Source of the DNA: Candidatus Roizmanbacteria bacterium RIFCSPLOWO2_02_FULL_40_13
GTDB lineage: Bacteria; Patescibacteriota; Microgenomatia; UBA1406; GWC2-37-13
Reading direction: 5' to 3'
Length of the DNA: 33,222 bases
Assembly: GCA_001789965.1 (NCBI GenBank)
Contig: MGBA01000006.1
Span: 1 to 33,222 of the forward strand
Below, in pieces: positions 1 through 21,945 of this stretch. The number at the start of each line of letters is the position of its first letter. Positions within the stretch are counted from its first letter, which is position 1. The position numbers and the translations under genes are program-made. A model generated the notes under the pieces. It made no database searches. It was not told the origin of the DNA and saw nothing but the letters and a program-made list of their open reading frames with translations.

Positions 1-1353
1 CATTACGTATCCTTGCGTCTGAAACGGGACAGTAGTTGGCATATCTCCTTCGTTCGTGTAGATAGTTGTAGGACCGGTGTTGGTTACATACATTAAGGAT
101 CGGTCATTTTCTACAGCTATCCGTCGCGCATGTTGCTGAAGTCGGGTTATTCCGTATGTTCCATCAAAAACTTGATTATTACCTATTGCGATTATGAAAT
201 CAATCGGTTCCCCTTTATTAAAGTAGTCTGCAACGAACCTATGACGAGCAATTTCAAAACAGGAAAGTACGGGAAAATTTCCATATTTCGTTTTAAAAAT
301 TATTGGTTTTTTTCCGTGGTATATGTTGCTTGAATAAGGATAAACAGCACGGTAAGGCTCAAGTCTTCCCTTATCCGGATCATATACAAGCGACAGATCG
401 TACCCGATTCCGTTATCGGTTTCATCCTCGGACTGTGCTCTTTCCAGTGATCCCATAACGATCACGACATCAAGATCTTTAGATGCTTTTTCTACTCTTT
501 CGCTCAAATCTGGTCTCTCGGTTAAGATATCTACCGCCGCCGCATACTCCGGCCAGACCACTACCTTTGCCCCTTTTTTTGCAACCTCTTTTGTAGTGCT
601 TATAAAATAATCGAGAATATCATCGGCAAGCTCTACTCTTTTCGACCACTCAAAACCAAAATTTCCCTGAACTGCGGCAACTCTTACTGTCTGGCTCACA
701 TTTTTTTGTGGAGTAGTAAATGCTTGAAATAATCCGATTGCGATAAAAAGTGTAAACGCTACGACATACCAGAAAAGCGGCCGGAGAGATTTTCCCCGAA
801 GATATATATCAAGCAATCTCCCAAGTAAAAAGCCGAAGGAAAGAATTACAAACTCTACCATTCCGGCCCCGAAATATGGCATAACCCAGTCAAAAAGCGA
901 AGGAGTATTGGTGGTCTTAACAAACGCTTTGGCAGGTCCAAAGAAAGGAATGTAATGTAAAGCTACCTGGATTACAAGCCATGCAAATGCGAATGCAAAA
1001 ATCTGCACGAACTCTTTTTTCGGATACTTCCGCATCAAATAGTGAGCTCCGGAAAAAGTCAGCAGAAAAGAAAGGCTGTACGCAAGCAGTGCCAACAGGA
1101 ACGGGTCAAAACGCTCAAACTTGCTAAGATAGAGGTGGGCGGAAAACCCGAAATACAAACCGTAGTTTGCTCCATAGGTAATTGCCTGCCAGATATTGAT
1201 TCTTTGCATTAAGAAATACAGAGGAATCGGAAAAAGATAAATGAGAAAGCTTGCTCCTGCATACTGACTCATGATCCCCATCACGATAGTCGAAAGGAAA
1301 AGTAGAATCGGAATTATATTGTCTTTTTCGCGGTGCCAGAATTTTGAAAACAT
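1..1353 (-). CDS. lnt: apolipoprotein N-acyltransferase-like protein, C-terminus cut by window edge
   Basis: Lnt moves an acyl chain to the N-terminal cysteine of lipoproteins in the cytoplasmic membrane. The visible 451 residues hold an N-terminal block of about six hydrophobic segments, then a nitrilase-type domain opening with RVAAVQGNFG. Of the Glu-Lys-Cys triad, Glu269 is in VVWPEYAA and Cys365 in VLSCFEIARHRF. The catalytic Lys is not in its usual place before a P-x-G-E stretch: the matching segment reads EPYRAVYPYS, with Arg335. The frame is open to base 1, so the end is missing. The ATG at 1353 follows a weak TACATT 7 nt upstream and a TAGAAT 15 nt upstream. The PHM-like gene ends 30 bp upstream on the same strand. 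The family call is firm; acyltransferase activity is less certain because of the Lys/Arg change, and the protein could be another membrane nitrilase. Confidence 0.85.
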   Translation of the reverse strand, partial: MFSKFWHREKDNIIPILLFLSTIVMGIMSQYAGASFLIYLFPIPLYFLMQRINIWQAITYGANYGLYFGFSAHLYLSKFERFDPFLLALLAYSLSFLLTFSGAHYLMRKYPKKEFVQIFAFAFAWLVIQVALHYIPFFGPAKAFVKTTNTPSLFDWVMPYFGAGMVEFVILSFGFLLGRLLDIYLRGKSLRPLFWYVVAFTLFIAIGLFQAFTTPQKNVSQTVRVAAVQGNFGFEWSKRVELADDILDYFISTTKEVAKKGAKVVVWPEYAAAVDILTERPDLSERVEKASKDLDVVIVMGSLERAQSEDETDNGIGYDLSLVYDPDKGRLEPYRAVYPYSSNIYHGKKPIIFKTKYGNFPVLSCFEIARHRFVADYFNKGEPIDFIIAIGNNQVFDGTYGITRLQQHARRIAVENDRSLMYVTNTGPTTIYTNEGDMPTTVPFQTQGYVM

Positions 1354-1382
1354 AGAGGTTAATGTAACATTCTACTCTTTTT

Positions 1383-2384
1383 TTAATCCTTCGCAAAATA
1401 AAATACCATCATTCCCATTGCACCCTGAACTGGAACAGAATTAGGATTTTCATATGTTGCACTAATAGAAATTTCGTCGTTTTTTTTGACACGTAATAAA
1501 ACACTGTAGAAAGGGTTTTTCCAGCTCCACAAGTCTTTGGTCTCGAGATAGGGAGTAAATGTGTGAATTAATTTTCCACTTTTATGGACATCAAGTCTTT
1601 TGCCACCATCCCATGAATGAATATGTCCGGCCATTTGAAGAATTACACCTGACTCTGAAAACTTATAGATATTAGTCTGCGCCTTACCAAGAAGACTTCT
1701 GTTCTTAGTAATTGTCGTGTTTGGCGGGACCTCGAACGTTTCGCCGTCACCCAAGGGGTTTCCGCATGGATTATCACTGATGTGCACTCTATAAAAGTCG
1801 ACTTTTTTAAAGCGTTGAAATAAACTGTCTTCTACTCCTTTCAGAATAATTTCAGCAGTTACGTTTTCAAATTCTTTCCCGACTCCGAGAGGAGGTTCTG
1901 GATTATGAAACATTGCTTCAAAAACAAGCGGTGTTCCCTTTGGCAAATACATTGCATAATCATCCGGGAAAACAGTTGGAGAGTGATTGTTTTCCGGGCT
2001 GGTAATAAATATCGCTTGATAATAGTTTTTACACGCATGGTCCTTCTGATCAACCCTGAATAATAAAGCGTGGTGAAGTGTGCTTCTATGTGAGTTTTTC
2101 ACTTTTAGTTCGAAACTTTTTACCCACATTCCTTTTGGCAATCTATAAACCTGGGAGAAAGCAATTTCATGATGTCCCTTGTTAAAAATTGAGTCCCCTG
2201 TGCCGTGTTTATGAGGATGTAATTCAGGAATCGCTTCGGTTGAGATGGAAACGACGCTCGGTTTGGATACTTTGACTGTTCCATTAAAAATAGCGAGACC
2301 AATAAAGATTGCTAAAAATATACATAAGACTACTATGTAGCTGTTTTTTATCAATAGTCGTTTTGTTGATTTTTTCTTAGCCAT
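1383..2384 (-). CDS. membrane-anchored PHM/DBH-like copper type II monooxygenase-fold protein
   Basis: 333 aa with one N-terminal hydrophobic anchor (about residues 13-34); the rest is likely outside the membrane. I see the ligand set of peptidylglycine alpha-hydroxylating and dopamine beta monooxygenases in order: H104-H105 in STLHHALLFRV, H160 in MFHNP, H254-x-H256 in MAGHIHSW, and a Met (M323/M325) in GAMGMMVFYF. The gap from the second His pair to the Met (about 69) resembles the family. Known enzymes use copper, ascorbate and oxygen to hydroxylate a C-H bond; the substrate here is unknown. An extra HPHKH cluster lies near residue 56-60. Its ATG overlaps the end of the upstream membrane gene by 8 bp, so the two are probably translationally coupled and may work together. 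The fold call rests on motifs read by eye. Confidence 0.7.
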   Translation of the reverse strand: MAKKKSTKRLLIKNSYIVVLCIFLAIFIGLAIFNGTVKVSKPSVVSISTEAIPELHPHKHGTGDSIFNKGHHEIAFSQVYRLPKGMWVKSFELKVKNSHRSTLHHALLFRVDQKDHACKNYYQAIFITSPENNHSPTVFPDDYAMYLPKGTPLVFEAMFHNPEPPLGVGKEFENVTAEIILKGVEDSLFQRFKKVDFYRVHISDNPCGNPLGDGETFEVPPNTTITKNRSLLGKAQTNIYKFSESGVILQMAGHIHSWDGGKRLDVHKSGKLIHTFTPYLETKDLWSWKNPFYSVLLRVKKNDEISISATYENPNSVPVQGAMGMMVFYFAKD

Positions 2385-3276
2385 TCTTGAGTTTAAACAG
2401 AGAAAGAATTTCGTTGACGCGCGTCGAGCTGATAAAGTGCATGAGCGTTAGAACAAGAAATAAATTATAGCTAAAAAAGTAGCTCAGCGCTGTATTCTTT
2501 GTAGAGATCATGTAGAGAAACAACCCAATCATCAGACCGTTTGAAAGAAAAACCACGGCGAGATAAACCGGTTTCGTATTAAGCGCGCTTACACCCTTGG
2601 GCAATGAAATAATTTTCGAGTAATAATGAAAGTAATAAATCAGGTAATGGTAGACTCCGATAAATGAGATCATTAGCATCTTTCCGAAGTTAAATCTGAT
2701 GTCCATAAAAAATAACACGACGGCAAGAGCTCCTTGTGCAAGAAAAAAGCAATCAGAAGCCTTCAAAACATATTTTTCTTTTGAAACAATAAGAAAGTAT
2801 TTACATACAGCAAGGATTCCCGCCAGAACGAAGAAAACTGCATAGGGAGAATTAAACTGCCAACTGACATGCAACCCTATCAAGGCGAAAATAAGAAAAA
2901 GCATCTGCAGCTTTTGCAATGCTGAATAAACCGGTTTGAAAAAGTTAAAGGTGAACTGATCGTCGAGAATCGTATGATATATCGCGTAAACAGTTGCCAG
3001 TAAAAGGAGCGACTCAATGCGATAATCCGGAAAATCAATTCGGTAAAAAAACGCGAAAAGAAACGCAGCAAGTCCTACAAAAACGAGAAAGTTTTTTATC
3101 TTTACTTTTCCTGACATGAGTTTGTAAAAGTACGCAATCAGAAAATGACTGTGTCCAAGGACGATTGCGGCTAACATGAAGTTGTATGTGTTGTTGACAA
3201 ATAAAAACAATGCGGTTGTCAGGATAAAAGAAGTTATTTTTTGTACAAGAAGCGATCTCGTTACCGGATCTTCCAT
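2377..3276 (-). CDS. polytopic membrane protein, unrecognised
   Basis: About 299 aa with eight or nine hydrophobic segments and no enzymatic motif that I recognise. Scattered membrane-embedded His and Tyr occur (VLGHSHFLIAYF, YHYLIYYFHYYSK). The start MEDPVTRS at 3276 is chosen over an upstream ATG at 3348 because the longer form would run into tatD, and because a TACAAT box (3287-3292) sits 10 nt before this ATG. A GAGG lies in the same spacer and could instead act as an SD. It overlaps the PHM-like gene by 8 bp, so both are likely made from one mRNA. The His-rich membrane segments next to a copper-fold protein suggest a joint role in metal or redox chemistry, but that is inference. Confidence 0.75.
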   Translation of the reverse strand: MEDPVTRSLLVQKITSFILTTALFLFVNNTYNFMLAAIVLGHSHFLIAYFYKLMSGKVKIKNFLVFVGLAAFLFAFFYRIDFPDYRIESLLLLATVYAIYHTILDDQFTFNFFKPVYSALQKLQMLFLIFALIGLHVSWQFNSPYAVFFVLAGILAVCKYFLIVSKEKYVLKASDCFFLAQGALAVVLFFMDIRFNFGKMLMISFIGVYHYLIYYFHYYSKIISLPKGVSALNTKPVYLAVVFLSNGLMIGLFLYMISTKNTALSYFFSYNLFLVLTLMHFISSTRVNEILSLFKLKNG

Positions 3277-3301
3277 AAGAACCTCTATTGTACCACCGAG
3301 A

Positions 3302-4156
3302 CTATATGTCAAATAATTTAATTGCGTTTGCGGTCGTTTTCCTTGCAAGTTCTTCTTTACTTATACCCCGCAATTTTGCAATAAATTCAGTAATGTCGGA
3401 TAGGAAAGAGGGCATATTAATAGGCTTTTTATCGCGCGGGTACGAACGGTAAGGTTCTGGCAATAGAAATGGAGAATCTGTTTCGAAGACCAGAGATTCT
3501 AAGGGAATTTTTTTTACAAACTCCCGTTTTTCTTTTGAATATGTTACATCTCCGTCAACTCCGATAAAGATTTTGTGAGCAAGGGCGTACGAAAGAAGTT
3601 CTTCATCCGGCTCACAGCAGTGAAAGACAGCGCGCCCTTCCAGTTGAGCACTCCATAGCGAATCAACGACCTCTAAAAAGTCTTTTTTTGCTTCTCGATT
3701 ATGAAAAATCAGACTTTTTTTGTATTGAAGAGCGAGCTGGATTTGTTTTTTTAAAACTTCTTTTTGAAGTGAGATAAATTTTTCATCTATTTCATACTCT
3801 TCATACTTTGTCCGCTGGTAATAATGCCTGTCAACTCCTACTTCACCTACTGCAACCACTTTTGGATGTCCCAGCAACGATTCAATTTCTTTTAATTCAT
3901 CTTTGATTAGAAATTTGAAATTTGTTTGTTTCTTGGAATTTGTTTCTTGGAATTTGAAAATATGGTGTGGGTGAATACCTACCGATGCATATACGTGTTC
4001 AAATTTTTCAGCTACTTCTATTGCTTTTTTTGACGTCGCAACATCTGTTGCCGGAATGTTAATATGTGTTATACCTGCCTTTTGCGCCTCTGCAACAACC
4101 TTTTCGACCTGTCCGTCAAATGCCTGAAAATTTAAATGACAATGAGTATCAAACAT
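3302..4156 (-). CDS. tatD: TatD-family metal-dependent hydrolase (DNase)
   Basis: 284 aa covering the full TatD amidohydrolase barrel. Metal ligands: H5 and H7 in FDTHCHLN, E105 in AVGEVGVD, H152 in IFHNREA, H179 in VFHCCEP and D227 in ETDSPFLLPEPYR. TatD proteins are cytoplasmic 3'-5' exonucleases acting on damaged or single-stranded DNA. Residues about 66-85 (FKFQETNSKK...) are a K/N/Q-rich insertion between the GIHPH motif and the next helix; the DNA under it is a direct-repeat tract at 3908-3960 and looks like a repeat that invaded the gene in frame. A TATAAT box lies 16 nt before the ATG, giving a very short leader. The small membrane gene at 4226 is divergent. Confidence 0.93.
   Translation of the reverse strand: MFDTHCHLNFQAFDGQVEKVVAEAQKAGITHINIPATDVATSKKAIEVAEKFEHVYASVGIHPHHIFKFQETNSKKQTNFKFLIKDELKEIESLLGHPKVVAVGEVGVDRHYYQRTKYEEYEIDEKFISLQKEVLKKQIQLALQYKKSLIFHNREAKKDFLEVVDSLWSAQLEGRAVFHCCEPDEELLSYALAHKIFIGVDGDVTYSKEKREFVKKIPLESLVFETDSPFLLPEPYRSYPRDKKPINMPSFLSDITEFIAKLRGISKEELARKTTANAIKLFDI
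3908..3960. repeat. direct-repeat tract inside tatD
   Basis: On the plus strand the unit TTTCTTGGAATTTG occurs twice in tandem, flanked by further TTTGAAATTTG-like pieces. It encodes the non-conserved K/N/Q-rich loop at TatD residues 66-85. Length and phase keep the reading frame open. Confidence 0.6.
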
Positions 4157-4189
4157 AGATTACGAAATGTAGATTATACATTTTACCTC

Positions 4190-4218
4190 TTGACAAATAA
4201 AAAAAGCTATCATATGAT
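4190..4218 (+). promoter_or_regulatory. consensus sigma70-type promoter for the 4226 gene
   Basis: TTGACA at 4190-4195, a 17-nt spacer, then TATGAT at 4213-4218. The ATG at 4226 is 7 nt beyond the -10 box, so transcription should begin at or next to the start codon. This is the clearest two-box promoter in the window. Confidence 0.8.
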
Positions 4219-4225
4219 GAGCTTG

Positions 4226-4684
4226 ATGGCCAGCAATCCGAATCTCCAACAATCTCTTGGCGGTCTTGAAAAAACTCTCAACGAATATTTTGGCAAAAAA
4301 GCTCCTCAACTTCCTGATGGAGTAAAAGATGTTATCGTAAACCTCGCTCCTTGGGTAACCTTAATCCTCATGATACTTGCATTACCGGCGCTTCTTTTTC
4401 TTTTTGGTCTTGCGACAGTACTTGCGCCTTTTGGCATGATGGCAGAAGGGGCGCGCTATGGCACTTCTCTGGTCGGGACAGTTGTCAGTATCGTATCGCT
4501 CGTCTTGGAAGCTCTTGCAATTCCTGGCTTGTTTGCCCGCTCTATTAAAGGATGGAGATTGGTTTACTGGTCAACGTTGGTAGGTTTCGTCGCAAGTCTT
4601 GTAAGCTTTAACGTGGTCGGTGGTCTTTTATCAGCTGTTATCGGACTTTACTTCCTTTTCCAGATCCGCGACCGCTACAAGTAA
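4226..4684 (+). CDS. small four-TM membrane protein, unrecognised
   Basis: 152 aa starting MASNPNLQQSLGGLEKT. An amphipathic N-terminal 40 residues (NEYFGKKAPQLPDGVKD) precedes about four hydrophobic segments rich in Gly, Ala, Leu and Val, and the protein ends in a charged FQIRDRYK tail. I recognise no catalytic motif. The start was placed at the ATG exactly 7 nt after a TATGAT -10 box; in-frame ATGs at 4214 and 4217 lie inside that box and would not be on the transcript. The neighbouring VIT1-like gene has its own -10 box, so the two are probably independent units. Function unknown. Confidence 0.75.
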   Translation: MASNPNLQQSLGGLEKTLNEYFGKKAPQLPDGVKDVIVNLAPWVTLILMILALPALLFLFGLATVLAPFGMMAEGARYGTSLVGTVVSIVSLVLEALAIPGLFARSIKGWRLVYWSTLVGFVASLVSFNVVGGLLSAVIGLYFLFQIRDRYK

Positions 4685-9287: not shown

Positions 9288-10379
9288 TTAAGCAATCTGG
9301 TATTTGCCTTCGGAGTTTTTTTCGACTATTCCCTTTAATTCTAACCGGGAGAGAACTTGCAAAGTTTGGGAAACAGGAAAATCAATAACTACTATCAGAT
9401 CGTCAATGAGAAGCGGTGTTTCCAAAAGCGCTTGGACAATGGATCGTTCCTCACTGTTTAACAAGGAAAAATCTACAGTTTTCTGTTTCGAATTTCGTAC
9501 TGAAATATTGTATTCCTCTAAAATATCCTGCGCCGAAGTAACAAGCTTCGCTCCTTGTTTGAGAAGGATATGAGGAGCTTCTGACATGTTGGAAGTAATC
9601 GGCGAAGGCACTGCAAAGACATCTCTTCCCTGATTTGCAGCATATGATGCTGTAATTAATGCCCCGGAATCTTTAAGCCCTTCGGTGATAAGAACCCCTT
9701 GCGACAGTCCGGAGATGATTCTGTTTCGTGAGATGAAAAGTCCGGGCAGCACAGTCCGGTCTGGAGGAAATTCAGAAACGATTACTCCTCCCTCTTTTAA
9801 AATCCTATCGTACAGCCATTTGTTTGCAGCGGGATACGGAATATTTACCCCACAACCGAGCACGGCAACGGTGGGCGCTTCATTGTCAAGAGCTGCTTTA
9901 TGGGCTTCTGCGTCGATCCCGAGAGCCATGCCGGAAACGATAGTCGCTCCATAATCTGCCAGATCTGAAGTAATTCTTTTTGTTACTTGAATACCATATG
10001 CGGTCGGTTTTCTGGTTCCGACAACCGCGATTCCGATTTTTTTTGGAAATAGTTTCGAAGGGTCTCCTTTTGCAAAAAGACATATCGGAGAATCTGAAAT
10101 ACTCAGAAGGTTTGGTGGATATTTTTGGGAAATCTGAGGGATAACATGAATCGATTGCTTTTCTAAACGATCGAGTTCTTTTTCCGGAGAAAAATCATTT
10201 CGAAAACTATAAAATGCTTCCGCAGATACTAAACCCAAAATTTCCTGTAGTTGCTTTAGATTGGCGCGATATGCTTTTTCAGCATTCCCAAAATGGGCAA
10301 CGAGAGAGGCGAACTTCATCGGACCGATTCCTAACACATAGGAAAAACCCAGATATGCTGTAACGAGAGACCGTTTCAT
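9288..10379 (-). CDS. dprA: DNA-processing protein DprA
   Basis: 363 aa. DprA binds incoming single-stranded DNA in the cytoplasm and loads RecA during natural transformation. Order: helical N-terminal region with GIGPMKFASLVAHFG; Rossmann core with AVVGTRKPTAYG, IVSGMALGIDAEAH, VLGCGVNIPYP, GVIVSEFPPD, SRNRIISGLSQGVLITEG and ANQGRDVFAVP; a C-terminal winged-helix part from about residue 305 (SLLNSEERSIVQALLETP). The start MKRSLVTAYL at 10379 is 6 nt from a TATATA box; an ATG two codons earlier is possible. Competence proteins are often kept in CPR bacteria that take up DNA, and this gene supports such uptake. Confidence 0.93.
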   Translation of the reverse strand: MKRSLVTAYLGFSYVLGIGPMKFASLVAHFGNAEKAYRANLKQLQEILGLVSAEAFYSFRNDFSPEKELDRLEKQSIHVIPQISQKYPPNLLSISDSPICLFAKGDPSKLFPKKIGIAVVGTRKPTAYGIQVTKRITSDLADYGATIVSGMALGIDAEAHKAALDNEAPTVAVLGCGVNIPYPAANKWLYDRILKEGGVIVSEFPPDRTVLPGLFISRNRIISGLSQGVLITEGLKDSGALITASYAANQGRDVFAVPSPITSNMSEAPHILLKQGAKLVTSAQDILEEYNISVRNSKQKTVDFSLLNSEERSIVQALLETPLLIDDLIVVIDFPVSQTLQVLSRLELKGIVEKNSEGKYQIA

Positions 10380-19897: not shown

Positions 19898-21520
19898 ATG
19901 CACAAGCTCCCTTATATCGAAAAAGCTTCTTCTGATCATGGATTTAAACAAAACCGAAAATGGGATCGGCGCGTAATTTTATTTCTTTTTTTATGTACTG
20001 TCTTCGTCGGATTTGGAATGATCGTCTTCCGGCTTTTTCAACTTACCATTGTTAAGGGAGAATATTACCGGCGCCTCTCCGATGAAAACCGTATTAAGGA
20101 AATCATTATTGAACCGAAGCGCGGCACTATTCTTGACCGGAAAGGAGCGGTGATTGCAGAAAGTACGATCGCCGATTATCGTGCACAAGCCAAGTCCTAT
20201 CCGGCTAAACGATCCTACCGAGACCCCGAAGCGCTTGCTCACCTCATAGGATACCGACAACTTGCAGATCCCACAGACATCGCCAACAACCGTTGTCTTA
20301 TAAAGTTAAAAAGTGGAGAAAAAACCGGAAAAAAAGGTGTCGAAAAAGTATATGATTGCGATCTTCATGGTGGTATCGGAAAAAAACTTGTAGAACTTGA
20401 TGCGCGGGGACTTGAGAAAAAAACATTAACCGTACTTCCACCCGAAGATGGAAAAATCACCCAACTCGCCCTGGATTTTGATCTTCAAAAGAAAGCGCAT
20501 GAACTCCTCAATCCGCCAGCTGGCGGAAAAAAAGGTGCGGTTGTTGCGATGAATCCCAAGACGGGAGAAATACTCGCTCTTGCATCCTCGCCTTCTTTTA
20601 ATCCGCAGGTCTTTGAAGACAATAATCAGGAGCTGATGAAGGAATACCTGCTCAGCTCAGACCACCCGCTTTTCAACCGCGCAACAGAAGGCCTCTATCC
20701 TCCGGGGTCTATCTTCAAAATTTTTATTGCCACAGGCGCTTTGGAGGAAAAGAGAATCGATGAGAATTACAAAGTCCTCGATACCGGAGAAATTGAGGCA
20801 GGTCCTTTAAAATTCGGTAACTGGTATTTTTTACAGTACGGAAGAACTGATGGCGAGGTCGATATCGTAAAAGGAATTAAGCGATCCAATGATATTTTTT
20901 TCTACAAGGTCGGGAGTTTGCTCGGACCGGAAAAAATTAAGTACTGGGGAGAAAAGTTTGGGTTTGCGAGGAAGACAGGACTGCCGTTTGAACAGGCAGA
21001 AGGCATGATTCCCTCGCCTTTCTGGAAAGAAGAAGTAATAAAAGACCAATGGTACTTGGGTGATACGTACAACCTTTCGATTGGGCAGGGATTTTTGTTA
21101 GTGACGCCTATACAAGTTGCACAAGCGACTAGTGTATTTGCCAATGGCGGGCAATTGTGTGAACCTCAGCTCCTCAAAGATACAACTCCGAAGTGTAAAA
21201 ACTTAAAAATAAGCGAAAAGACCATGGGACTTTTAAAAGAAGGCATGAAGGAAGCATGTGCTACGGGAGGGACAGGATGGCCTCTTTTTGATTTTTCTGT
21301 TGCAACCGGATCTGCAAAGATCGATGTGTCCTGTAAGACAGGAACGGCAGAGTCGATCGGAAAACATGATGATCCCCATGCATGGATTACGACCTTTGCC
21401 CCATCGGAAAATCCTGAAATTGTAGTAACGGTGCTTATTGAAAACGGAGGGGAAGGTTCAAGTGTCGCAGGTCCGATCGCCAAAGAACTCCTCAAGACTT
21501 ACTTCGGTGGCAAACGCTGA
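19898..21520 (+). CDS. mrdA: penicillin-binding protein 2 (peptidoglycan transpeptidase)
   Basis: 540 aa. One membrane anchor (residues about 26-50), a dimerisation domain with RIKEIIIEPKRGTILDRKG, then the transpeptidase domain. Active-site motifs: S271-I-F-K in YPPGSIFK, S330-N-D in KRSNDIFFYK, and K480-T-G in SCKTGTAES. It cross-links peptidoglycan outside the membrane during elongation. The start MHKLPYIEKA at 19898 is 10 nt after TATAAT (19882-19887). Residues NPPAGGK (about 205-211) are encoded by a 16-bp palindrome that seems inserted just before the conserved KGAVVAMNPKTGEILAL. The stop codon touches the 3' end of the split tRNA on the other strand. It could also be classed as an FtsI-type class B PBP. 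Confidence 0.92.
   Translation: MHKLPYIEKASSDHGFKQNRKWDRRVILFLFLCTVFVGFGMIVFRLFQLTIVKGEYYRRLSDENRIKEIIIEPKRGTILDRKGAVIAESTIADYRAQAKSYPAKRSYRDPEALAHLIGYRQLADPTDIANNRCLIKLKSGEKTGKKGVEKVYDCDLHGGIGKKLVELDARGLEKKTLTVLPPEDGKITQLALDFDLQKKAHELLNPPAGGKKGAVVAMNPKTGEILALASSPSFNPQVFEDNNQELMKEYLLSSDHPLFNRATEGLYPPGSIFKIFIATGALEEKRIDENYKVLDTGEIEAGPLKFGNWYFLQYGRTDGEVDIVKGIKRSNDIFFYKVGSLLGPEKIKYWGEKFGFARKTGLPFEQAEGMIPSPFWKEEVIKDQWYLGDTYNLSIGQGFLLVTPIQVAQATSVFANGGQLCEPQLLKDTTPKCKNLKISEKTMGLLKEGMKEACATGGTGWPLFDFSVATGSAKIDVSCKTGTAESIGKHDDPHAWITTFAPSENPEIVVTVLIENGGEGSSVAGPIAKELLKTYFGGKR
20512..20527. repeat. 16-bp palindrome within the PBP2 gene
   Basis: TCCGCCAGCTGGCGGA is a perfect palindrome coding for the PPAGG stretch. 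Its CCGCC...GGCGG core also occurs in the palindrome found in the split tRNA (21549-21564, 21905-21920). Confidence 0.6.
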
Positions 21521-21574
21521 GCCCGGAGCGAGAATCGAACTCGCGCCTCCCCGCCACGGCGGGGTGTTTTGCCA
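21521..21574 (-). pseudogene. 3' part of a split tRNA-like gene
   Basis: On the minus strand: anticodon-arm palindrome, a complete T arm GCGAG-TTCGATT-CTCGC and the acceptor 3' strand TCCGGGC. It has no 5' acceptor or D stem, because the GIY-YIG stop codon abuts it at 21575. TCCGGGC pairs perfectly with GCCCGGA of the 5' part at 21939-21945. The PBP2 stop touches its other end. Confidence 0.75.
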
Positions 21575-21817
21575 TTATTTGTCCATTAGTTTTTTAAAAG
21601 CCTTTCCTCCTTTGTAAGACTTTATTTGTTTTTCTCGCTTGATTGCTTTAATCAAGGAGTCTGCTTTTTCAACATAAATTAAATGAAATGGTCCTTTATT
21701 TCTTAGCGATTTTGTGTTGTTTGAATTATGTTCAATGACTCTTTGCTTCAGATTTTTTGTGTGCCCGGTGTAGTAATGATTGTTTTTGTAGGATTGAATT
21801 ATATAGACATAATACAT
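21575..21817 (-). CDS. small GIY-YIG nuclease (UPF0213 type)
   Basis: 80 aa, one GIY-YIG domain. YYVYIIQS is the GIY strand and YYTGHTKNLKQRVIEHNSN holds the YIG-equivalent (YTG), the catalytic Arg and a His. The conserved Glu is in LIYVEKADSLIKAIKREKQIK, and the domain ends with GGKAFKKLM. Free-standing relatives are often repair or recombination nucleases; others are homing enzymes. The ATG shares its A with the final A of the encoded CCA of tRNA-Thr, so the gene can only be expressed from a tRNA co-transcript or by a cut at the tRNA end. It ends exactly at the 38-bp repeat. This placement suggests that it drives or profits from the tRNA insertion. Confidence 0.88.
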   Translation of the reverse strand: MYYVYIIQSYKNNHYYTGHTKNLKQRVIEHNSNNTKSLRNKGPFHLIYVEKADSLIKAIKREKQIKSYKGGKAFKKLMDK

Positions 21818-21890
21818 GGAGCCTGGAGGGGGAATCGAACCCCCGCCTGACCCTTACCAAGGGCCTGTTTTGCCACTTAACTATCCAGGC
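21817..21890 (-). tRNA. tRNA-Thr (anticodon GGT), CCA encoded
   Basis: Cloverleaf: acceptor GCCTGGA/TCCAGGC, discriminator T, encoded CCA (21819-21817), anticodon arm GGCCC-TTGGTAA-GGGTC, T arm GGGGG-TTCGATT-CCCCC. The variable loop is short. It lies 2 nt after the 5' part of the split tRNA-like gene and is nearly identical to it in the first 25 nt (one difference), so the two are paralogs. Its CCA overlaps the nuclease ATG. Confidence 0.92.
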
Positions 21891-21892
21891 TT

Positions 21893-21945
21893 GAACTCGC
21901 GCCTCCCCGCCACGGCGGGGTGTTTTGCCACTTAACTATCCGGGC
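21893..21945 (-). pseudogene. 5' part of a split tRNA-like gene
   Basis: It begins GCCCGGATAGTTAAGTGGC and runs through the D arm and the anticodon arm to the T-loop, then stops 2 nt before tRNA-Thr. The anticodon arm is a 16-nt perfect palindrome (21905-21920) with no U33, and a 5-bp stem leaves only a 6-nt loop, so no anticodon can be assigned. A TATAAT box (complement of 21960-21965) precedes it by 14 nt and probably drives the whole tRNA-nuclease unit. Confidence 0.7.

What the first reader, a model, noticed from the sequence alone, without database searches (positions are those of the whole stretch)
21521..21945. A split tRNA-like gene interrupted by a tRNA-Thr plus GIY-YIG nuclease cassette with 38-bp direct repeats
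The 5' part (21893-21945) and the 3' part (21521-21574) have perfectly complementary acceptor strands (GCCCGGA and TCCGGGC) and share an identical 38-bp block. Between them lie 318 bp carrying only tRNA-Thr and an 80-aa GIY-YIG gene, both on the same strand. Excision between the repeats would restore one continuous tRNA-like gene. This fits a minimal nuclease-driven element that targets tRNA genes and carries its own tRNA, a layout I do not know from described elements.
Basis: partly seen in the sequence, partly recalled or inferred. Interest (0 to 1): 0.85.

Follow-up and report, generated by a model that had tools for sequence, protein, structure and literature searches.

The report
tRNA-replacing nuclease element
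A tiny DNA-cutting gene and an intact threonine tRNA sit inside a broken copy of the same kind of tRNA gene, and the same layout recurs in many bacteria across several phyla, pointing to an undescribed family of selfish elements that invade tRNA genes and supply a replacement tRNA.

Summary
On the minus strand, 21945-21520 reads: 5' half of a tRNA-like gene X, intact tRNA-Thr(GGT), 80-aa GIY-YIG nuclease, 3' half of X, with an exact 38-bp direct repeat. X, when joined, has paired acceptor and T stems, but a palindrome (CCCCGCCGTGGCGGGG) replaces its anticodon arm, so it is dead. The inner tRNA-Thr is the only Thr(GGT) found in this genome. The locus belongs to a wide pattern: of 41 solo GIY-YIG genes in four genomes, 30 lie within 200 bp of a tRNA/tmRNA on the same strand and none only on the opposite strand. 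Copies of 5' or 3' pieces of the adjacent tRNA, often with palindromes, flank the nuclease far above control. Nuclease lineages track tRNA isotype across phyla. In two other genomes with the split layout (tRNA-Ser, tRNA-Gly), relatives hold unoccupied genes matching the outer, broken tRNA; the inner, working tRNA is a different allele. Best reading: a minimal free-standing homing element that splits the resident tRNA gene and supplies its own. Closest known: T4/T6 SegB and fungal mitochondrial mobile ORFs. Cleavage, present mobility, the palindromes' role and which Thr copy was resident in the window remain unshown.

The parts
21931..21945 (-). 5' end of the outer, broken tRNA X (acceptor 5' strand GCCCGGA, start of D arm)
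   Evidence: complementary to the acceptor strand at the 3' end of X
21893..21930 (-). 38-bp direct repeat, copy 1 (D-arm part, palindrome, variable region, 5' T-stem of X)
21905..21920 (-). palindrome CCCCGCCGTGGCGGGG replacing the anticodon arm of X (copy 1)
   Evidence: same position as the anticodon arm of the inner tRNA, 16 nt against 17
21817..21890 (-). intact tRNA-Thr(GGT) with encoded CCA; only Thr(GGT) found in the genome
21575..21817 (-). 80-aa solo GIY-YIG nuclease; its ATG shares one base with the tRNA CCA
   Evidence: (Y5, Y16, R26, H30, E62 invariant in the alignment)
21537..21574 (-). 38-bp direct repeat, copy 2, starting right after the nuclease stop codon
21549..21564 (-). 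palindrome in repeat copy 2
21520..21536 (-). 3' end of X: rest of T arm, acceptor 3' strand TCCGGGC and discriminator base; touches the stop codon of the convergent PBP gene

Best explanation
The locus is an inserted minimal free-standing homing element. Its cargo is one small SLX1/UPF0213-like GIY-YIG nuclease gene and one intact tRNA gene. It has split a tRNA-Thr gene (now X, dead, with a palindrome in place of its anticodon arm), and the intact tRNA-Thr now serves the cell. Inferred working: the nuclease cuts an unoccupied tRNA gene of the kind its lineage recognises; recombination with an occupied copy, through the tRNA halves, installs the cassette; the cell lives because the cassette brings a working tRNA, and it then depends on the cassette. 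Shown here by sequence comparison: the anatomy, the non-random linkage of such nucleases to tRNA genes, isotype tracking, occupied and unoccupied orthologous sites, and a different, incoming-type tRNA inside the split native one in two relatives of the layout. Inferred: DNA cutting, the homing step, dependence, and that X is the resident copy in the window.
For: Complete Pfam census of four genomes: 30 of 41 solo GIY-YIG genes have a same-strand tRNA/tmRNA within 200 bp, 0 opposite only, binomial P 1e-10 to 1e-15 per genome; 108-gene set: 78 linked, none opposite within 250 bp; GTDB hits from several phyla: 56 of 80 same strand. tRNA copies on the far side: 5' pieces in 39 of 67 loci against 11 of 1340 for other-isotype controls, 3' pieces in 18 of 51 against 20 of 1020. 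Isotype needs 55 changes on the nuclease tree against 84 +- 2.1 with shuffled labels, minimum 76 in 300. Split layout with outer acceptor strands pairing with each other but differing from the inner tRNA: window, L242 Gly, L240 Tyr, L280 Ser. Ser(GCT): the outer 3' piece of L280 scores 51/56 against the intact gene of relative L279 and 38/56 against its own inner tRNA; relatives carry the outer type, two of them unoccupied. Gly(TCC): the outer gene of L242, queried with the anticodon arm filled in from its inner tRNA, matches relatives at 97-100% while the inner tRNA matches at 88%. Nuclease fold and motif residues kept.
Against: No biochemical or read evidence of cutting or mobility. No syntenic relative for the window itself, and X and the inner tRNA-Thr share an almost identical D arm, so in the window the inner tRNA could be a diverged local duplicate. 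In most relatives inner and outer pieces are identical, which local duplication also explains. The intact inner tRNA is not visibly altered to resist cutting. 80 residues leave no separate DNA-binding domain. A large group of solo GIY-YIG genes is not near tRNAs: 7 of 30 linked in a phylum-wide sample.
Confidence: 0.72

Rival explanations
1. tRNA genes are passive landing sites: a host or neutral GIY-YIG gene sits downstream of tRNA promoters, and the tRNA pieces are ordinary tandem duplication and decay.
For: Inner and outer pieces are identical in most loci; array amplification of a GIY-tRNA unit is seen; pseudo-tRNA scars without a nuclease exist.
Against: Isotype tracking of nuclease lineages across phyla; the working tRNA is of a different type from the split native one in L280 and L242; linkage to so many tRNA species on one strand only.
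Confidence: 0.17
2. Simple local duplication in the window only: X and tRNA-Thr are a diverged tandem pair of one genome and the nuclease inserted later; the window is a chance look-alike of the real elements.
For: X and the inner tRNA share 24 of 25 first bases; relatives of the same family have a different D arm.
Against: Same detailed layout as L242, the nearest protein by tree path, including a near-identical palindrome in the flanking repeat; arm-for-palindrome exchange as in other loci.
Confidence: 0.2
3. X is a split or intron-bearing tRNA whose halves are joined in RNA, the nuclease being an intron gene.
For: Perfectly paired acceptor halves; GIY-YIG enzymes occur in introns (general knowledge).
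Against: No group I/II intron match in Rfam; joined X has no usable anticodon; 38 bp are duplicated, which an intron would not do; the insert holds another whole tRNA.
Confidence: 0.03
4. Misassembly of a repeated tRNA region.
For: Exact repeats; draft genome in 25 contigs.
Against: The same layout is assembled independently in other genomes.
Confidence: 0.03

Closest known systems
T-even phage SegB (free-standing GIY-YIG homing endonuclease of the tRNA region; PMC13096335 and references there)
   Same: Solo GIY-YIG gene tied to tRNA genes; [quoted passage not shown] drives tandem amplification of the tRNA-nuclease segment, compare the 357-bp arrays in G004.
   Different: SegB is a phage gene; the window protein matches no PHROGs family at E 0.01. 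Here: bacterial chromosomes, palindrome-bearing pseudo-tRNA pieces and replacement of the resident tRNA.
Mobile endonuclease ORFs of fungal mitochondria that bring a foreign gene end (Allomyces atp6, Glomus atp6/atp9/cox2/nad3; PMC3630166)
   Same: Endonuclease ORF inserted in an essential gene, foreign functional piece supplied, native piece left displaced; one Glomus case uses a GIY-YIG enzyme.
   Different: Protein genes in organelles, 3' ends only; here a whole tRNA gene in bacteria, with palindromes and with 5'- or 3'-side insertion.
Insertion sequences in CPR rRNA genes with LAGLIDADG or, rarely, GIY-YIG genes (PMC11270868)
   Same: Same bacterial group, RNA genes invaded by nuclease genes.
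   Different: That paper calls GIY-YIG cases sparse and outside homing; no tRNA is mentioned.
UPF0213 / SLX1 nuclease domains (PDB 1zg2, 7cq2, 6sei)
   Same: Nearest solved relatives by sequence and fold.
   Different: SLX1 is a eukaryotic branched-DNA nuclease with a partner; no such partner was found in the 318-bp insert.
Engineered cleave-and-rescue / home-and-rescue gene drives (e.g. PMC7968924, seen as a search result)
   Same: Nuclease disrupts an essential gene and carries a working copy.
   Different: Engineered; here killing of the native copy by the nuclease is inferred only.

Membership tests
GIY-YIG nuclease superfamily (PF01541) | domain match above the curated cut-off | tested here: met
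   59.3 bits against 22.6
GIY-YIG nuclease superfamily (PF01541) | motif tyrosines, Arg and Glu kept | tested here: met
   Y5, Y16, R26, H30, E62 invariant in 11 sequences
UPF0213/SLX1-like subgroup | closest sequence and fold relatives in PDB | tested here: met
   1zg2 E 1.3e-13; Foldseek 1zg2 and Slx1 first, E 2.6e-3 and above
Free-standing homing endonuclease element | occupied and unoccupied alleles at the same site | tested here: met
   met for relatives: Ser(GCT) and Gly(TCC) loci; no syntenic relative for the window's own site
Free-standing homing endonuclease element | cuts the cognate unoccupied allele | not testable with these tools
   needs an enzyme assay
Free-standing homing endonuclease element | insertion protects the carrier from cutting | tested here: inconclusive
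   outer copies carry palindromes, but an intact tRNA remains in each locus
Group I intron with homing endonuclease | intron RNA structure around the ORF | tested here: not met
   Rfam finds only the two tRNAs in the window
Integrase-type element in a tRNA gene | integrase gene with att sites | tested here: not met
   the 318-bp insert holds only tRNA-Thr and the nuclease
T4 SegB family | match to phage protein families | tested here: not met
   no PHROGs match at E 0.01
Gene-replacing mobile ORF (fungal mitochondrial type) | working piece foreign, displaced piece native | tested here: inconclusive
   met in L280 and L242; undecided in the window

The most novel reading that the evidence does not exclude
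A cross-phylum family of natural cleave-and-rescue elements: the nuclease destroys the cell's own copy of an essential tRNA gene, leaving a palindrome-scarred pseudo-tRNA, while the cassette supplies a cut-resistant tRNA of the same kind, so that losing the element kills the cell.
Probability: 0.35. Interest if true: 0.95.

Novelty: new variant of a known kind. Interest (0 to 1): 0.86.

Why it matters
Small solo GIY-YIG genes are abundant in Patescibacteria and occur in many phyla, yet are usually left unexplained. The tRNA-linked group would be among the smallest mobile elements known, it attacks a universally essential gene class, and it moves working tRNA genes between lineages. That gives a natural counterpart of engineered rescue drives, a source of tRNA gene replacement that can confuse tRNA annotation, and testable predictions (isotype-specific cutting; outer tRNA = native type, inner tRNA = incoming type).

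Tried and rejected
Intron or trans-spliced tRNA: no intron family and no usable anticodon in joined X. X as the missing tRNA-His because GTG can be read in its loop: rejected, since the loop is one base short and the arm is a palindrome, and X shares its first 25 bases but one with tRNA-Thr. tRNA as chance neighbour: rejected. Phage origin: the viral-contig scan gave no relative and PHROGs none. Window-specific empty site: flanking proteins found in none of the relatives' tRNA-Thr loci. Alignment A1 was too diverse for the genome scan, so a four-sequence alignment was used, which biases towards the window's relatives. Paper searches for tRNA-linked GIY-YIG genes in bacteria gave nothing that matches; the library lacks most subscription papers, so novelty is provisional.

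Full report
What is in the window. On the minus strand the order is: first 53 nt of a tRNA-like gene X (21945-21893), two bases, tRNA-Thr(GGT) (21890-21817), an 80-codon GIY-YIG gene (21817-21575), then the last 55 nt of X (21574-21520). The two pieces of X overlap by an exact 38-bp repeat. The acceptor strands of X pair perfectly with each other and differ from those of tRNA-Thr at one pair; the T stem of X differs at further pairs, with pairing kept. In X the anticodon arm is exchanged for the palindrome CCCCGCCGTGGCGGGG (16 nt against 17 in tRNA-Thr). Joined, X is read by ARAGORN as a tRNA with no proper anticodon; with the inner anticodon arm put back it reads as tRNA-Thr(GGT). X is therefore a dead tRNA-Thr-type gene. 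The working tRNA-Thr is the only Thr(GGT) found; 6% of the genome may be missing.

The protein. It is a catalytic GIY-YIG domain with no further domain. Motif residues are invariant in an 11-sequence alignment. The closest solved relatives are UPF0213 proteins and SLX1, then I-TevI (AlphaFold mean pLDDT 84.8). No fold match reached E 0.001, so the structural relation rests mainly on sequence.

A wide pattern. The same genome has 14 solo GIY-YIG matches (one of them weak) besides UvrC. In a full Pfam census of four genomes, 30 of 41 lie within 200 bp of a tRNA or tmRNA on the same strand, none only on the opposite strand. In 108 genes from the genome and its relatives, 36 lie upstream of a tRNA, 31 downstream and 11 between two. 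In 80 GTDB loci, 56 have a same-strand tRNA within 200 bp; they include Patescibacteria, Omnitrophota, Bacteroidota, Ignavibacteriota, Thermotogota and others. Those 80 were chosen by similarity to the window protein. In a phylum-wide sample of top Pfam scorers only 7 of 30 are linked, so one large group of solo GIY-YIG genes lives elsewhere.

Anatomy of the family. With A, B, C for the 5' part, middle arms and 3' part of a tRNA and P for a palindrome: type 1 is A-P-c' / nuclease / ABC; type 2 is ABC / nuclease / a'-P-C. Each linked locus keeps an intact tRNA. 5' copies are found in 39 of 67 type-1 loci against 11 of 1340 control comparisons with other isotypes; 3' copies in 18 of 51 type-2 loci against 20 of 1020. 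GC-rich palindromes with stems of 7 or more occur on that side in 42 of 117, against 12 of 117 control stretches and 4 of 585 shuffles (Fisher 4e-6). In 35 of 70 type-1 loci the nuclease ends inside the tRNA, often using bases 8-10 of the tRNA as its stop codon. The window is the full form A-P-c' / ABC / nuclease / a'-P-C. So is L242 (tRNA-Gly), the nearest protein by tree path, with a near-identical palindrome. L240 (Tyr), L280 (Ser) and L153 (His) have the mirror order with the nuclease first.

Specificity and spread. On a tree of 180 nucleases, with few columns and many weak forks, tRNA isotype changes 55 times against 84 +- 2.1 for shuffled labels. Related nucleases in different phyla sit at the same kind of tRNA (e.g. 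Pro in Calditrichota and Bacteroidota). This is what homing with inherited target preference predicts.

Occupied, empty and replaced sites. tRNA-Ser(GCT) in Moranbacteria: relatives G060 and G063 have the native gene (GGAAAGG type) with no adjacent nuclease; G062 has a nuclease downstream; G059 a palindrome-bearing 5' piece without a nuclease; G064 (L279) a nuclease running into the native gene plus a 3' pseudo-copy; G057 (L280) the native gene split, with a nuclease and a different tRNA-Ser (GGAGAGG type) between its parts. In the blast comparison the right flank of G057 is colinear with G059, and its left flank with G059 and G063; tRNA order differs in some. The outer 3' piece of L280 scores 51/56 against L279's intact gene and 38/56 against its own inner tRNA. 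tRNA-Gly(TCC): four relatives of the L242 genome carry genes 97-100% identical to the outer gene of L242, while the inner tRNA is 88%. The query for that comparison had the anticodon arm filled in from the inner tRNA, so the native identity rests on the other parts: the outer 3' piece is exact over 32-33 nt in three relatives and 33/34 in the fourth. A third, weaker case is tRNA-Gly(GCC) in G035 against G006. For the window's own site no syntenic relative was found.

Mechanism. Shown by comparison: linkage, layout, isotype tracking, recurrent occupation, and replacement of the working tRNA by another type. Inferred: the nuclease cuts the unoccupied gene, repair from an occupied copy installs the cassette, and the host is kept alive by, and then depends on, the cassette's tRNA. 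Repeated cutting or recombination between the tRNA pieces would also explain arrays such as 13 exact copies at 357-bp spacing in G004, as reported for SegB in T6. The palindromes are unexplained: they could mark destroyed target sites, insulate the direct repeats, or be separate dispersed repeats that settle in dead copies.

Known relatives and novelty. SegB (PMC13096335) and fungal mitochondrial mobile ORFs with foreign gene ends (PMC3630166) work in the most similar ways. A paper on CPR rRNA insertions treats GIY-YIG genes there as sparse and outside homing. I found no description of tRNA-replacing GIY-YIG elements in the library held. I therefore rate it a new variant of a known kind, with high interest, pending a cleavage assay.

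Noticed in passing
L076 (G004:C2) 90-4521: 13 exact copies, 357 bp apart, of a unit made of a GIY-YIG gene and a palindrome-bearing 5' piece of tRNA-Ser; the other end of the array, on another contig (L119), leads into an intact tRNA-Ser(TGA).
   Followed up: partly
L233 (G006:C37, about 9970-10155, minus strand): An intact tRNA-Gly(TCC) lies inside the anticodon loop of a tRNA-Gly(GCC)-like gene, between palindrome halves, with no nuclease.
   Followed up: partly
L069, L135, L141, L221, L224: Solo GIY-YIG genes also sit about 170-200 bp downstream of tmRNA genes on the same strand.
   Followed up: partly
L070, L101, L297, L298, L309, L383 and others: Solo GIY-YIG genes away from tRNAs are often flanked by REP-like palindromes (GTCATTCCCGC..., ATTCTGG...CCAGAAT), as direct or inverted repeats; a link between these nucleases and dispersed palindromes is worth testing.
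   Followed up: partly
L330 (G059), L359 (G090), L231 (G006): 5' pieces of a tRNA (with a palindrome in L330 and L359) directly before an intact tRNA, with no nuclease between: scars or precursors of the element.
   Followed up: partly
window genome G000: No tRNA-His gene was found among 44 distinct tRNAs; it may lie in the missing part of the assembly.
   Followed up: no
window 20512-20527: Palindrome TCCGCCAGCTGGCGGA inside the PBP gene; nearly the same palindrome sits in the tRNA-Asn fragment on contig C19 of this genome.
   Followed up: no
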